64,000 nucleotides of DNA from Methanospirillum hungatei JF-1 (lineage in GTDB: Archaea; Halobacteriota; Methanomicrobia; Methanomicrobiales; Methanospirillaceae), in contig NC_007796.1 in NCBI RefSeq assembly GCF_000013445.1, positions 2,330,936 to 2,394,935 of the forward strand, read 5' to 3'. A program made the translations under genes and the position numbers. Under the pieces are notes generated by a model. The model worked only from the letters and a program-made list of their open reading frames with translations, was not told the origin of the DNA and did no database searches. Below, piece after piece: positions 5,632-10,127 of this stretch. The first letter of the stretch is position 1; each line of letters begins with the position of its first letter.

Positions 5632-6462
5632 ATGACTCCGGCCACAGAAAAACTTGAGCAACTGGTCCACATCATTCCAATTGGGTATGAGATCGACCGG
5701 GTGATCACCCCGTTCCAGGAGATAAAAGCCCACCGCGTCCACCTCATCTCAATGGATGACCTGACAAAGTATGATAACCCAAATGAACATGCACTGACGT
5801 CCAGGCAGCATGGATTTGATGAGCGGAACCGTGCGATTCTGGAGAAAAAGGGGATAGAAGTGGAACTGCACCGGATTGACATGTTTGACATCATTGAAGT
5901 CATGAAAACCATCTCATGGCTTATTGTCAAAGAGAAGAAGATGGGAAACCGCGTCTATGTCAATATGTCTGCCTGTGGAAAGATCGCCTGCGTCGGGGCG
6001 ACTCTTGCTGCCATGATCCATAATGTCAGGTTATACTATGTCAGGGCCAGCCGGTACTCATCAACAAAGAAAGAACAGAATGAGCACGGACTGTCGATAT
6101 GTGATGCGGTAAAGGTGTGGCAGCTGGAGAATTTCAGATTTGCACTCCCTGATGAATCATCACTCCTCATTCTTAATTATCTTGCGAATAGTGATGATGC
6201 ACTCTCCTGTGATGATCTCATCCGGTACCTCCATTCGATGCATGTTGACGGGTTTGAAGAGGATTATTGGAATTATGCATATGAAAAGAGGAGAAAAGTG
6301 CAGACCAGATACCTGATGAAACTGCAGAACCGGTACTTAAGTAAACTGGACGATGCAGGGTACATCAAACGAAAAAAGATCGGGAGGAATACGGTAGTGA
6401 AACTGACCAAGACCGGGAGGTATGTTGCGGCTGTAAGCGGGATGGATGGAGATACTCTGTAA
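5632..6462 (+). CDS. HFX_2341/DUF6293-like regulator: CARF-like domain plus winged helix
   Basis: 276 residues. The N-terminal ~150 residues form an alternating beta/alpha pattern starting with VHIIPIGYEIDRVITPF, and carry N111-x-S113-x-x-G116-K117, which resembles the second conserved motif of CARF (Rossmann-like nucleotide-sensing) domains. Residues ~170-270 read as a winged helix (RYLSKLDDAGYIKRKKIGRN, then VVKLTKTGRYVA). Archaeal proteins of this type are annotated as HFX_2341-family regulators and are related in plan to Csa3, which binds cyclic oligonucleotides. No CRISPR-cas genes are in the window, so the ligand is unknown. It is divergent from the large helicase and is followed 62 bases later by the LDRFNK repeat protein, which it may control (inference). 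Confidence 0.7.
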   Translation: MTPATEKLEQLVHIIPIGYEIDRVITPFQEIKAHRVHLISMDDLTKYDNPNEHALTSRQHGFDERNRAILEKKGIEVELHRIDMFDIIEVMKTISWLIVKEKKMGNRVYVNMSACGKIACVGATLAAMIHNVRLYYVRASRYSSTKKEQNEHGLSICDAVKVWQLENFRFALPDESSLLILNYLANSDDALSCDDLIRYLHSMHVDGFEEDYWNYAYEKRRKVQTRYLMKLQNRYLSKLDDAGYIKRKKIGRNTVVKLTKTGRYVAAVSGMDGDTL

Positions 6463-6524
6463 ATACGCCCGGAACGGAAAGGCCGATAAGAAGATAATTA
6501 ATTCTCTTCATCTAAAAATTTCTG

Positions 6525-7163
6525 ATGAAAAAATTTCTTCTCCTCATGAGTCTGTGTGTATTCATGATGGCAATTCACGGATCTTCGGTCTGTTTCGCCG
6601 CAGAAACCCCAAGGCTGGTTGATTATTCATTGGATCGATTCAACAAGGCTCCGGACCTGGTCAATACCGAACTGGACCGTATGAATAAATCACCGGTTCT
6701 GGTCGATACAGCACTGGATCGGTTTAATAAGACATCAAATCAGGTGGATACAGAACTTGATCGGTTCAATAAAACTCCTGATATTGTGGATACCAGACTT
6801 GATCGGCTGAATAAGGCTCCTGTCTTTGTCAATACCGAACTGGACCGGTTTAATAAGACACCGCAATTGATAGATACGGAACTTGATCGGTTAAACAAGG
6901 CGATAGAACTCGTGAATACCGAACTGGACCGGTTTAATAAGACACCGCAATTGATAGATACGGAACTTGATCGGTTAAACAAGGCGATAGAACTCGTAAA
7001 TACCGAATTGGACCGGTTTAATAAGACCCCTCAATTGATAGATACGGAACTTGATCGGTTAAACAAGGCAATGGAACTTGTGGATATCGAGCTGGACCGG
7101 TTTAATAAAAAATTTGATCTGGTTGATACTGAACTGGATAGGTTCAATAAGACACCATACTGA
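6525..7163 (+). CDS. Secreted protein of 14-residue LDRFNK tandem repeats
   Basis: 212 residues. A clear signal peptide (about 1-25, MKKFLLLMSLCVFMMA then cleavage near CFAAE) is followed by 12 full and one shortened copy of a 14-residue unit with consensus TELDRFNKTPQLID. Invariant positions are LDR and NK; F/L alternates at the residue between them. L3, F6, P/I10 and I/V13 fall on a 3-4-4-3 spacing, which would allow two heptads per unit or a solenoid, although prolines in many units argue against a plain coiled coil. There is no catalytic motif or membrane anchor, so it is probably exported and structural or adhesive (inference). I do not recognise a family. The central copies are nearly identical at DNA level, so copy number probably varies among strains. 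Confidence 0.75.
   Translation: MKKFLLLMSLCVFMMAIHGSSVCFAAETPRLVDYSLDRFNKAPDLVNTELDRMNKSPVLVDTALDRFNKTSNQVDTELDRFNKTPDIVDTRLDRLNKAPVFVNTELDRFNKTPQLIDTELDRLNKAIELVNTELDRFNKTPQLIDTELDRLNKAIELVNTELDRFNKTPQLIDTELDRLNKAMELVDIELDRFNKKFDLVDTELDRFNKTPY
6831..7082 (+). repeat. Three 84-bp tandem repeats inside the LDRFNK gene
   Basis: Copies start at 6831, 6915 and 6999, each beginning AATACCGAA(C/T)TGGACCGG. They are close to identical over 84 bases, encoding two 14-residue units each. The flanking units match in protein but have drifted in DNA, so the 84-bp block looks recently amplified. Confidence 0.9.
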
Positions 7164-7443
7164 CCATACTATTTTTTGTAACCCGGGTTCTCCACCCTTT
7201 TCTTAGTTGAGGTTTATTCATCTTCAGATGTTCAGGAGGAATCAAGAGAGCCAGATTACCTATCGCAATCTCATTTCCCGGTTCAAGTGCCAGCACCCGC
7301 ATCGACATCTCTCTTGACTTGTCGTTTTTCTCAAGGAACCGGTATAAAGTTCCAAGGTTATTTAGACCAATAACATAATCCGGGTTCAGCGATACAGCAC
7401 GCTCTAAATCCGTTATTGCTGCCTCAAATTTTTGCTGCTGCAT
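7144..7443 (-). CDS. Short TPR protein, possibly a gene remnant
   Basis: 99 residues from the ATG at 7443. It contains one and a half tetratricopeptide repeats: EAAITDLERAVSLNPDY, then a complete repeat GLNNLGTLYRFLEKN..SREMSMRVLALEPGNEIA. The frame stays open upstream through LGNRGIAY directly before the ATG, which is exactly the first half of the truncated first TPR, and that stretch runs into the end of the neighbouring flavoprotein gene. This suggests either an undetected non-ATG start inside that gene or a larger TPR gene that lost its 5' end. The last ~20 residues (WRTRVTKNSMVSMVSY) look unrelated, and the 3' end overlaps the convergent repeat-protein gene by 20 bases. Protein-protein scaffold at best. 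Confidence 0.5.
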   Translation of the reverse strand: MQQQKFEAAITDLERAVSLNPDYVIGLNNLGTLYRFLEKNDKSREMSMRVLALEPGNEIAIGNLALLIPPEHLKMNKPQLRKGWRTRVTKNSMVSMVSY

Positions 7444-7471
7444 ATATGCAATTCCCCGGTTCCCAAGTCTT

Positions 7472-8926
7472 CTAATAAACGAACTTCTTTCCGAAATCTG
7501 AACACATCTGTTTCACCGCTTTTCTCCCGCTCAAAACAGCCCCCGGTATTCCACCGCCCGTGACAACCCACTGACCGGCCATGGAAAACCCGGAGAGACC
7601 AGGGAGGATCTGTGGCAGATCCAGGAAGAAGGAGTCAGGGGTGACCTGCCAGCCCTCATAACTTCCCCTCCAGTTCCCGGTATACCTGACAAAAGTCATG
7701 GGCGTTGCTACATCCATAACCTCACATCTTTCAGATAAGTCAGGATACTGCTGACATAAAAGGGCTAATACCTTTCTTCCGACGTCATCCTTTTCTGCCA
7801 GGTAGGCTTCACTGTGGTACTGCAACCGGTCCCAGTACGAGTAATCTGCAGTAATCCATGTCGTAATAACCCCTTTTCCTGGTGGATAGAGGGTGGGATC
7901 ATGGACATGATTCCTGAAACTGATGGTATCCTGCTTCACTCCGGCAATCTCAACCGGATTGTCAAACAGTATGGTCAGATCTTTCGGGATATGGGAGAGA
8001 TCAGTACTCAGCCCGAATGAGATGAAGACGATCGGTGGAAAAGGTTTCAGGTTCTGGTAATAGCCTCGGATGGTGTCATCACAGTATGCTCCTTGCAGCC
8101 ACTCAAAGATCGTGGTATGCCCGTCAGCACAGGAGATGACATAATCAGCATACCGCTCGGTCCCGTCTGCAAGTCTGACCCCCTTTGCCCGGTTTTTTTC
8201 GGTGATGATTGCGGTTACTTTGCTCTTATACCGGATGACCCCACCAAGGTCCAGGTATCTCTTCTCAATTGCCTTTGCACATGGCAAGGACCCCCCGATC
8301 GGATACCCGGCATTTTTTGCCCCCTGCATAGCAAGACCCATGAGCGGAAAGAACAGAGACTGCCCTTCCCACCCAAACCCTGCAGTGAGAAGATTTCGAA
8401 GAACAGGACTCTTCACTTCTGACAGTATATCATGAACGGTTGGTTTGTACCGTTTCATCAGGCTGAAATAAGGGATATATCGGATGATATCAAGGATGGT
8501 CATGTCAACCAGTGTCTCCATCCTGCTGAGTTTTTTGATATCCTTGCAGAGCCGGGAGATGAAGGGTGTATCTTCCGGTGATATCCGGATCAGCTCGTCG
8601 TATAACCTATCAGGATCCGTGTAGATTGTAATCTCGTTCCCATGCTCATCACGCACGGATGTCCATGAGTCAGTATGATGAAACCTTCTGCCCTCCATCA
8701 GTCCGAGTTTGTCATAGACCTGGTACAGGGGTGTCCCGGGTTTTGAGCCGCAGAGCCAGTGGATACAGAGATCAAAGGTATACCCCTTCCGGGTCCACGC
8801 GGTACACAGCCCACCGGGGATTGTATGCATCTCAAGGATCTCGGTCTCAAATCCGTTCATCCGGGCAAAACAGCCGGCGGAGAGCCCTGCCATTCCTCCA
8901 CCGATAATCAGAACTGACGGAGCCAT
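7472..8926 (-). CDS. Phytoene desaturase-like FAD-dependent oxidoreductase
   Basis: 484 residues, normal for the CrtI/phytoene dehydrogenase-like superfamily. The N-terminus has the dinucleotide-binding fold VLIIGGGMAGLSAGCFARMNG (about 5-25) followed by the acidic end of beta-2 (EILEMHTIPGGLC). The C-terminus has the second FAD motif (GFSMAGQWVVTGGGIPGAVLSGR). The middle has GGSLPCAKAIEKRYLDLGG, also typical. In methanogens such proteins act on isoprenoid or other polyprenyl substrates, or have unknown redox roles. No carotenoid genes accompany it, so the substrate is unknown. It appears monocistronic or the lead gene to the TPR fragment. Confidence 0.8.
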   Translation of the reverse strand: MAPSVLIIGGGMAGLSAGCFARMNGFETEILEMHTIPGGLCTAWTRKGYTFDLCIHWLCGSKPGTPLYQVYDKLGLMEGRRFHHTDSWTSVRDEHGNEITIYTDPDRLYDELIRISPEDTPFISRLCKDIKKLSRMETLVDMTILDIIRYIPYFSLMKRYKPTVHDILSEVKSPVLRNLLTAGFGWEGQSLFFPLMGLAMQGAKNAGYPIGGSLPCAKAIEKRYLDLGGVIRYKSKVTAIITEKNRAKGVRLADGTERYADYVISCADGHTTIFEWLQGAYCDDTIRGYYQNLKPFPPIVFISFGLSTDLSHIPKDLTILFDNPVEIAGVKQDTISFRNHVHDPTLYPPGKGVITTWITADYSYWDRLQYHSEAYLAEKDDVGRKVLALLCQQYPDLSERCEVMDVATPMTFVRYTGNWRGSYEGWQVTPDSFFLDLPQILPGLSGFSMAGQWVVTGGGIPGAVLSGRKAVKQMCSDFGKKFVY

Positions 8927-9037
8927 ATGGTATAGGGATAGGTGATGATGGATGATATTGACTATGATAGACCAAACAACTCAGTTCTTTTTGTATTCAC
9001 AGGCCTGATCGATAAATGAGCGAATGGGAATGGACAA

Positions 9038-9229
9038 TCACCCGGTATACCTGACCTGATAAATTACCCCGTTCATATCATCTGAAATCAGCATTGATCC
9101 GTCTGGAAGGATCTCAACATCGACCGGCCTTCCATACATCTTCCCATCCCTTAGCCATCCTTCAATAAAGACAGATAGGAGATCGCAATTCATTACCCGG
9201 AATATCCGCTCACAGATATGAGAGAACAT
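9038..9229 (-). pseudogene. C-terminal remnant of a sorbosone-dehydrogenase/PQQ sugar-dehydrogenase-like beta-propeller
   Basis: Only 63 residues. The last ~35 (GRPVDVEILPDGSMLISDD followed by NGVIYQVRY) match the closing blade of soluble glucose/sorbosone dehydrogenase-type propellers. Those proteins are normally 350-450 residues, so nearly all of the gene is missing. The first residues (MFSHICERIFRV) do not look like the family or like a signal peptide. Best read as a decayed gene end. Confidence 0.6.
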
Positions 9230-9347
9230 ACACCGGTATCACACGGAGGGATAATCATCATACCGGTTACCGGTGACTCATACTTTGGGTTTTGGAATAT
9301 CTGATAGGCTATCAGTGATCAGATAGAATAATTACTCAAAGCCTCTC

Positions 9348-9370
9348 CAAAAAAAATCCGGGGGGATTGT
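9348..9370 (-). terminator. Hairpin plus U-tract terminator for the NapH-like gene
   Basis: On the minus strand AATCC-CCCC-GGATT (9368-9355) is immediately followed by eight T residues. It lies 14 bases beyond the stop of the NapH-like gene ending at 9384. Confidence 0.7.
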
Positions 9371-9383
9371 CTTTTTCACCCGG

Positions 9384-10127
9384 TTATACTTTTTTCCGGT
9401 CAGGCCTGCCAAAAGAGAACCTGATTACATCTTTGGGACAGGCATCAATACAGGCTCCGCACAGGATACATTCAGCCTGTTCCATCCGGCCCTGTTCCAC
9501 CATGGAGAGGACATCAAGCGACTGGGAACATTCCTTTGTGCACCGTCCACAGCTGATACAATCTTCTGAATGAGCGGTCAGCTGAAGGCCGGGAAGCCCG
9601 ATGGCATTCCGGATCTTCCTGCCAACGATCATCAGGACAGATATGGGACAGAAGAGATGGCACATCCCTCTTCTCCCGAGGAACAGTGCGATTGTAGTGA
9701 TGATAAAGAGGATAACAATAAACACGGTCAGTTCTATAGGGCCGGCTACCGAGAGGCCATTGGTTGTCTGATAGAATGGCTCAATTGAAGTTATGCCTCC
9801 TGCTCGGATGAAGAAGGCAAGCAGCATGAGGATCCAGAGGACAAAGAGCCCGTACCTGAACCGGTCTATCCAGGGGTTTGTTATCCGCTTTTCCTGTACC
9901 TCACGAGCCAGATCCTGAAGAGAGCCAAAAGGACAGATCCACCCACACCATAATCTTCCGCCAATCAGGGAAAACAGGAAGATAAAGGTGAATATAATAG
10001 CACTCCCAGTTACTATTCCAGATACGGCTCCTTCAATGATGAGAACCGGTGAGAGGTAAAAGAATGTGACGGGGAGGAGGAGGAGTGAGATTAGAAGGAT
10101 CAGACGTCTGAGCTTTTGCTGGTTCAT
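9384..10127 (-). CDS. NapH/NosR-type polyferredoxin membrane protein
   Basis: 247 residues with about five membrane segments. Two CxxxCP motifs (CGWICPFGSLQD near residue 63 and CHLFCPIS near 160) are the hallmark of the NapH/NosR/CcoG-like 4Fe-4S membrane family. They are followed by a C-terminal pair of [4Fe-4S] motifs (CISCGRCTKECS and CILCGACIDACPKD) on the cytoplasmic side. The protein would pass electrons between membrane carriers and soluble ferredoxin; the partner here is not apparent. It lies 36 bases downstream of the chagasin-type gene on the same strand and probably shares its transcript. A clear hairpin terminator follows. Confidence 0.8.
   Translation of the reverse strand: MNQQKLRRLILLISLLLLPVTFFYLSPVLIIEGAVSGIVTGSAIIFTFIFLFSLIGGRLWCGWICPFGSLQDLAREVQEKRITNPWIDRFRYGLFVLWILMLLAFFIRAGGITSIEPFYQTTNGLSVAGPIELTVFIVILFIITTIALFLGRRGMCHLFCPISVLMIVGRKIRNAIGLPGLQLTAHSEDCISCGRCTKECSQSLDVLSMVEQGRMEQAECILCGACIDACPKDVIRFSFGRPDRKKV

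What the first reader, a model, noticed from the sequence alone, without database searches (positions are those of the whole stretch)
6525..7163. Unrecognised secreted 14-residue LDRFNK repeat protein
Twelve-and-a-half near-perfect units make up the whole mature protein. The 84-base DNA blocks are nearly identical, so the repeat number is probably variable, as in surface proteins. The unit resembles no family I can name.
Basis: seen in the sequence. Interest (0 to 1): 0.6.

Follow-up and report, generated by a model that had tools for sequence, protein, structure and literature searches.

The report
Secreted 14-residue repeat protein, Methanospirillum only
A sheath-forming methane-producing archaeon carries a real but undescribed exported protein built almost wholly of a 14-residue unit whose number differs between strains; it was found only in this genus and is probably a rod-like part of the cell envelope that may carry sugar chains.

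Summary
Window 6525-7163 encodes 212 aa: a signal peptide of about 25 aa, a short linker and 13 units of 14 residues (VDTELDRFNKTPxL). "Near-perfect" fits only the centre: identity is 59% at lag 14 and 76% at lag 28; about three 84-bp blocks are 93% alike. Against the orthologue in an M. hungatei MAG, dN/dS is 0.096 and that copy is exactly 84 bp shorter, so unit number varies. Homologues occur in 5 of 12 Methanospirillum genomes and in none of 220 other genomes of the class.

Above-cutoff Pfam hits are repeat artefacts: orthologues do not share them, and a scrambled-unit control also gives one. The unit has heptad hydrophobicity (period 3.5) but proline in 34 of 50 units; AlphaFold models are too weak to settle the fold. 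Asn 9 is invariant (50/50) and starts an N-x-S/T sequon in all or nearly all units of three species, but in only 7 of 13 here. A second, apparently unrelated Methanospirillum family also has one sequon per 14 residues.

Best reading: exported, proline-punctuated amphipathic-helix rod of the envelope, glycosylated perhaps in some species. Location, fold and glycosylation are untested.

The parts
6495..6503 (+). TATA-like AT-rich element (TAATTAATT), 22-30 bases before the ATG; suggests a very short or absent leader
   Evidence: Near-identical AATTAATT element at a similar distance before the ATG in M59, G149 and G153, a weaker form in G155, although gene neighbours differ. No promoter assay; inference.
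6525..6599 (+). Signal peptide MKKFLLLMSLCVFMMAIHGSSVCFA, probable cleavage CFA|AET, no lipobox
   Evidence: Sequence; comparable N-terminus in all homologues with a known start. By eye, no predictor was available.
6600..6617 (+). Linker AETPRL before the array
   Evidence: Sequence; RLVDY conserved in all homologues with a known start
6618..7160 (+). Array of 13 units of 14 residues, consensus VDTELDRFNKTPxL; last unit lacks one residue and ends the protein in TPY
   Evidence: Unit table and lag identities; TRF
6828..7079 (+). Units 6-11: three 84-bp (28-residue) blocks, like units 90-100% identical in DNA; most likely the region of recent gain or loss
   Evidence: Unit identity matrix; the best place for the 84 bp missing in M59 is ORF offset 420-459, i.e. 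window 6945-6984
7161..7163 (+). Stop codon TGA
5632..6462 (+). Neighbour, not part of the feature: HFX_2341-type / DUF6293 regulator
   Evidence: Pfam PF19810 E 2.9e-39, PF22665 E 2.8e-22; not linked to the repeat gene in G149, G153, G155

Best explanation
A real, genus-restricted, exported repeat protein. It is made with a Sec-type signal peptide and leaves the cell as a chain of amphipathic helical segments, two heptads per 14-residue unit (a = Leu, d = Phe/Leu/Met, a' = mostly Pro/Ile, d' = Val/Ile). The chain is bent or interrupted at Asn-Lys-Thr-Pro turns, giving a long, acidic, segmented rod or bundle outside the membrane. The rod most likely serves as a structural or spacer part of the Methanospirillum envelope (S-layer, sheath and plug region). 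Its length is set by the number of 84-bp blocks, gained or lost by recombination inside the array while both ends stay fixed. Asn 9 may carry an N-glycan, in most units of related species and in at most about half of the units here. Shown: gene, repeats, purifying selection, variable number, genus restriction, heptad hydrophobicity, invariant Asn. Inferred: export, helicity, rod shape, envelope location, glycosylation.
For: dN/dS 0.096 and 84-bp length difference; found in 5 of 12 Methanospirillum and 0 of 220 other genomes of the class; ends conserved while the interior varies, 28-residue superperiod in every lineage; hydrophobic periodicity 3.5 strongest in JF-1, M59 and G149, second strongest in G153, and Leu at heptad position a in 13 of 13 JF-1 units; AlphaFold model of JF-1 mostly helical with breaks near the Pro sites; mature protein net charge -10, no Cys, Gly or Trp. 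The M. hungatei envelope has parts whose proteins are not identified (PMC6242892, PMC11641113).
Against: Models have mean pLDDT 54 and 48 on four-row alignments, so the fold is not established. The homologue with Pro in every unit is predicted with only short broken helices. No anchor, no localisation data. Two nearly complete Methanospirillum genomes lack the gene, so it is not needed for whatever they share.
Confidence: 0.4

Rival explanations
1. Glycan carrier: the array exists to display one N-glycan per unit, like a mucin-type rod made by an archaeal oligosaccharyltransferase, and protein shape is secondary.
For: Asn 9 invariant in 50 of 50 units; sequon in 10/10 units of G149, 8/8 of G153, 7/8 in the G155 fragments, with Ser and Thr both used. 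A second Methanospirillum family has one sequon per 14 residues. Four sequons at exact 14-residue spacing are rare in these genomes outside the two families, backward-pattern controls mostly 0. Five STT3 matches in JF-1.
Against: JF-1 has only 7 of 13 and M59 6 of 11 sequons, yet Asn 9 stays where the sequon is gone, so Asn has some other role too. Most sequons are followed by Pro, which lowers use in eukaryotes (my knowledge; archaeal rule not found). Ser/Thr before Pro also suits a helix N-cap.
Confidence: 0.2
2. Classical oligomeric coiled-coil stalk or adhesin, continuous helices pairing through the heptads.
For: Perfect 4-3 spacing and period 3.5; PDB sequence hits, all weak, include many coiled coils such as tropomyosin, E 0.01 and above.
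Against: Pro at a core position in 34 of 50 units, in every unit of G149; no head domain and no anchor, which stalks usually have.
Confidence: 0.13
3. Surface-seeking amphipathic helices, in the manner of proline-punctuated apolipoproteins, lying on the membrane or sheath.
For: Short amphipathic units with regular Pro.
Against: Analogy only; period is 14, not 11 or 22; no lipid or binding test.
Confidence: 0.1
4. Part of one superfamily with the KFNSSEI 14-residue arrays found elsewhere in the same genomes.
For: Protein and profile searches link them at E about 1e-6 to 1e-7; both exported, both 14 residues, both FN-x-S/T.
Against: When the 14 columns of one family are permuted, 13-63% of permutations align as well as the real order, so the score reflects period and composition. 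Period 3.5 is strong in the first family but not in the second.
Confidence: 0.08
5. A dispensable or hardly expressed array without a definite function.
For: Absent from two nearly complete genomes of the genus; no expression record found in the texts read.
Against: dN/dS 0.096; both ends and the register conserved across species.
Confidence: 0.07

Closest known systems
KFNSSEI 14-residue secreted arrays of Methanospirillum
   Same: Signal peptide, nearly all repeat, 14-residue unit, FN-x-S/T once per unit, same genus
   Different: Unit sequences are no more alike than permuted ones; no 3.5 periodicity; tandem gene pairs; own N- and C-terminal caps (YPGGM, PLPxGV)
Heptad coiled coils (tropomyosin type)
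   Same: Hydrophobic 4-3 spacing, period 3.5
   Different: Pro in a core position of most units; short interrupted helices predicted in G149
Exchangeable apolipoproteins (proline-punctuated 11/22-mers; from memory)
   Same: Works-like resemblance: tandem amphipathic helices with regular Pro
   Different: Period 14; no sequence relation found; other domain of life
M. hungatei sheath protein MspA (Mhun_2271) and S-layer protein Mhun_2263
   Same: Exported envelope proteins of the same species
   Different: MspA: two imperfect repeats of about 80 aa and cross-beta sheath structure (PMC6242892). Mhun_2263: Ig-like domains and a PGF-CTERM anchor (PMC11641113). None of these is seen here.

Membership tests
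Pfam PEP-utilisers_N (PF05524) | Hit over cut-off shared by orthologues | tested here: not met
   JF-1 36.2 bits, cut-off 24.4; M59 22.4 bits, below cut-off, G149 and G153 not listed; scrambled-unit control gives another family over cut-off
Pfam TMP_N, phage tape measure N-terminus (PF24164) | Hit over cut-off shared by orthologues | tested here: not met
   JF-1 33.9 bits, cut-off 27; M59 26.6, below; G149 and G153 not listed; the scrambled control also hits it weakly. No phage, viral-contig or plasmid match
Any NCBIfam family | Score at or above the curated cut-off | tested here: not met
   All listed hits far below cut-off
Coiled coil | Hydrophobic a/d heptad pattern | tested here: met
   Period 3.5; a = L in 13/13 JF-1 units, d = F/L/M, d' = V/I
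Coiled coil | No regular helix breakers in the core | tested here: not met
   Pro at position 12 (a') in 34 of 50 units
Coiled coil | Oligomeric assembly | not testable with these tools
   No multimer prediction or biochemistry
N-glycoprotein | N-x-S/T sequons and an oligosaccharyltransferase in the host | tested here: met
   Sequons in 7 of 13 units; five STT3 matches
N-glycoprotein | Glycan on Asn | not testable with these tools
   Needs mass spectrometry
KFNSSEI array family | Unit similarity beyond period and composition | tested here: not met
   Column-permutation test, 13-63% as good
Exported protein | Signal peptide conserved in homologues | tested here: met
   By inspection in JF-1, M59, G149, G153, G155; no predictor run
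S-layer / PGF-CTERM anchored protein | C-terminal PGF motif and membrane anchor | tested here: not met
   Protein ends in ...LDRFNKTPY

The most novel reading that the evidence does not exclude
Methanospirillum independently evolved two exported families that each place one N-glycosylation site every 14 residues, so the genus builds glycan-studded rods for its sheath or plug region, with rod length set by repeat number.
Probability: 0.12. Interest if true: 0.7.

Novelty: new member of a known kind. Interest (0 to 1): 0.35.

Why it matters
Sheathed archaea have envelope parts, such as the spacer plugs and the links between S-layer and sheath, whose proteins are not fully identified. An exported, genus-only protein of variable length under purifying selection is a reasonable candidate to test there. 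A second, apparently unrelated 14-residue sequon array in the same genus would, if glycosylation is shown, point to a regular way of displaying glycans that I do not know to have been described.

Tried and rejected
Pfam, NCBIfam and PHROGs hits: not shared as a set by orthologues, and a scrambled-unit control also scores. PDB sequence search: best E 0.01, many coiled coils. Homology to the KFNSSEI family: not supported by permutation. Phage or plasmid origin: no match. The hit in another genus (G066) lies in the repeat tract of a larger protein with a methyltransferase-like start, not a relative. The G011 hit of the second family lies antisense to a HEAT-repeat-like ORF. Link to the upstream HFX_2341-type regulator: rejected, since G149 and G153 have the repeat gene without a close copy and G155 has it on another contig. 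Fold-library searches were not run because both models are of low confidence. The locus tag was not established. The antisense ORF 6740-6982 lies inside the array; differences with M59 follow the plus-strand third codon position. Papers on M. hungatei: main texts searched for repeat proteins, nothing matching; supplements could not be read.

Full report
Observation. The ORF at 6525-7163 (+) encodes 212 residues. TRF finds 12.5 copies of a 42-bp unit and, in 6831-7108, 3.3 copies of an 84-bp unit at 93%. In register the mature protein is a six-residue linker and 13 units. Amino-acid identity at lag 14 is 59%, at lag 28 76%, and at lags 13, 15 and 21 1-8%. So the array is real, but 'near-perfect' fits only units 6-11, where like units are 90-100% identical in DNA.

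Where it is. The window is part of a single-contig genome of 3,544,738 bp. That size matches M. hungatei JF-1 by my own knowledge, and the closest named record is an M. hungatei MAG, M59, about 92% identical over the locus.

It is a gene. Against M59 the differences fall 28, 9 and 3 at codon positions 3, 1 and 2; dN 0.026, dS 0.273. The M59 copy is 184 aa, exactly 28 residues shorter, behind the same upstream gene. This shows that block number changes between close relatives. M59 is a MAG, and an assembler could in principle collapse a block, but sequence differences outside the missing block show it is a separate allele.

Relatives. Homologues lie in M59 (L004; L005 in G151 is a contig of the same length and the same match), G149 (170 aa, 10 units) and G153 (142 aa, 8 units), and as fragments at two contig ends in G155. 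A profile search of 232 genomes of the class found it only in five of 12 Methanospirillum genomes. An order-wide protein search gave one further weak hit, in an unrelated repeat tract. Viral contigs, phages and plasmids gave none. G152 and G159, both 99% complete, lack it. Neighbours differ between species, but an AT-rich TATA-like element stands at a similar distance before the ATG.

Anatomy. Both ends are conserved: RLVDY and DRFNK at the start, RFNxTPY at the end (MPF in G155). Inside, units alternate in a 28-residue superperiod in every lineage, with lineage-specific sequences. Mean unit identity within G149 and within G153 (58% each) exceeds that to other species (47-55%), as expected if blocks are amplified separately. 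Over 50 units position 9 is always Asn, position 7 Arg in 47, position 12 Pro in 34, position 11 Ser or Thr in 38.

Fold. Hydrophobicity peaks at 3.5 residues in JF-1, M59 and G149 and is second strongest in G153, with Leu at heptad a in all 13 JF-1 units. Pro at a' speaks against an unbroken coiled coil. AlphaFold gives mostly helix for JF-1 at mean pLDDT 54, pTM 0.24, and short broken helices for G149 at pLDDT 48, pTM 0.14. Both alignments have only four rows. I read this as amphipathic helical segments with turns near N-K-T-P; that is an inference.

Database hits. Pfam reports PEP-utilisers_N and TMP_N over cut-off for JF-1. M59 scores below cut-off for both, G149 and G153 are not listed for them, and a control in which residues are rearranged within the units scores over cut-off with GP180_GOLD. 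NCBIfam and PHROGs hits are likewise not shared by the orthologues as a set. I treat all as artefacts of periodic sequence.

Sequons and a second family. Asn 9 begins N-x-S/T in 7 of 13 units here, 6 of 11 in M59, 10 of 10 in G149, 8 of 8 in G153 and 7 of 8 in the G155 fragments. A weak hit in G153 led to a different exported family with a 14-residue KFNSSEI unit. It is present in all seven good Methanospirillum genomes, in JF-1 as two tandem genes near 3.49 Mb. A pattern search for four sequons at exact 14-residue spacing found in JF-1, on the plus strand, only these tandem genes; in G149 and G153 it found both families. Such a pattern also matches frames that are not read, so the counts are only a screen. 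The JF-1 genome holds five STT3 matches. But permuting the unit columns shows that the two families are not alike beyond period and composition. Evidence against a pure glycan role: JF-1 lacks nearly half the sequons while keeping Asn 9, and most sequons are followed by Pro.

Literature. The M. hungatei S-layer protein is Mhun_2263, in a band that stains as glycoprotein, and S-layer paralogues are proposed as links to the sheath (PMC11641113). The sheath protein is Mhun_2271, and the proteins of the spacer plugs remained unclear in that study (PMC6242892). The M. hungatei papers searched do not mention a protein of this kind in the passages returned; supplements could not be read.

Verdict. 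A real, undescribed exported repeat protein, restricted to the genus in the genomes searched. Its most likely role is structural, in the envelope. Confidence in the feature is high; confidence in the mechanism is moderate to low.

Noticed in passing
G000:C1:3489356-3490623 (L034:5357-6052 and 6187-6672): Two tandem genes for a second exported 14-residue repeat family (KFNSSEI), one N-x-S/T per unit, present in all seven good Methanospirillum genomes.
   Followed up: partly
window 7467-7471, ORF 7144-7443 (-): The TPR gene downstream is a 99-aa remnant; M59 has 379 aa there. About 849 bp are missing in the window relative to M59.
   Followed up: partly
window 9191-9192, ORF 9038-9229 (-): A 63-aa remnant where M59 has a 401-aa sugar-dehydrogenase-like gene (L004:9270-10475); about 1,013 bp missing in the window.
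   Followed up: partly
L012:420-2762: Next to the N-terminal half of the repeat gene in G155 lies a subtilase-like gene with its own TPTPTPYPSPTVTR repeats.
   Followed up: no
G153:C1:1874106-1874555 (L031, L032): Another array with a 42-bp period, read on one strand as a 14-residue coil-like unit.
   Followed up: no
L038:7663-8508 and 8716-9564: In G159 the KFNSSDV array gene lies beside two paralogous exported proteins of about 280 aa; the one tested has no NCBIfam match.
   Followed up: no
G000:C1, five places (L073-L076 and one more): Five STT3 oligosaccharyltransferase matches in one genome.
   Followed up: no
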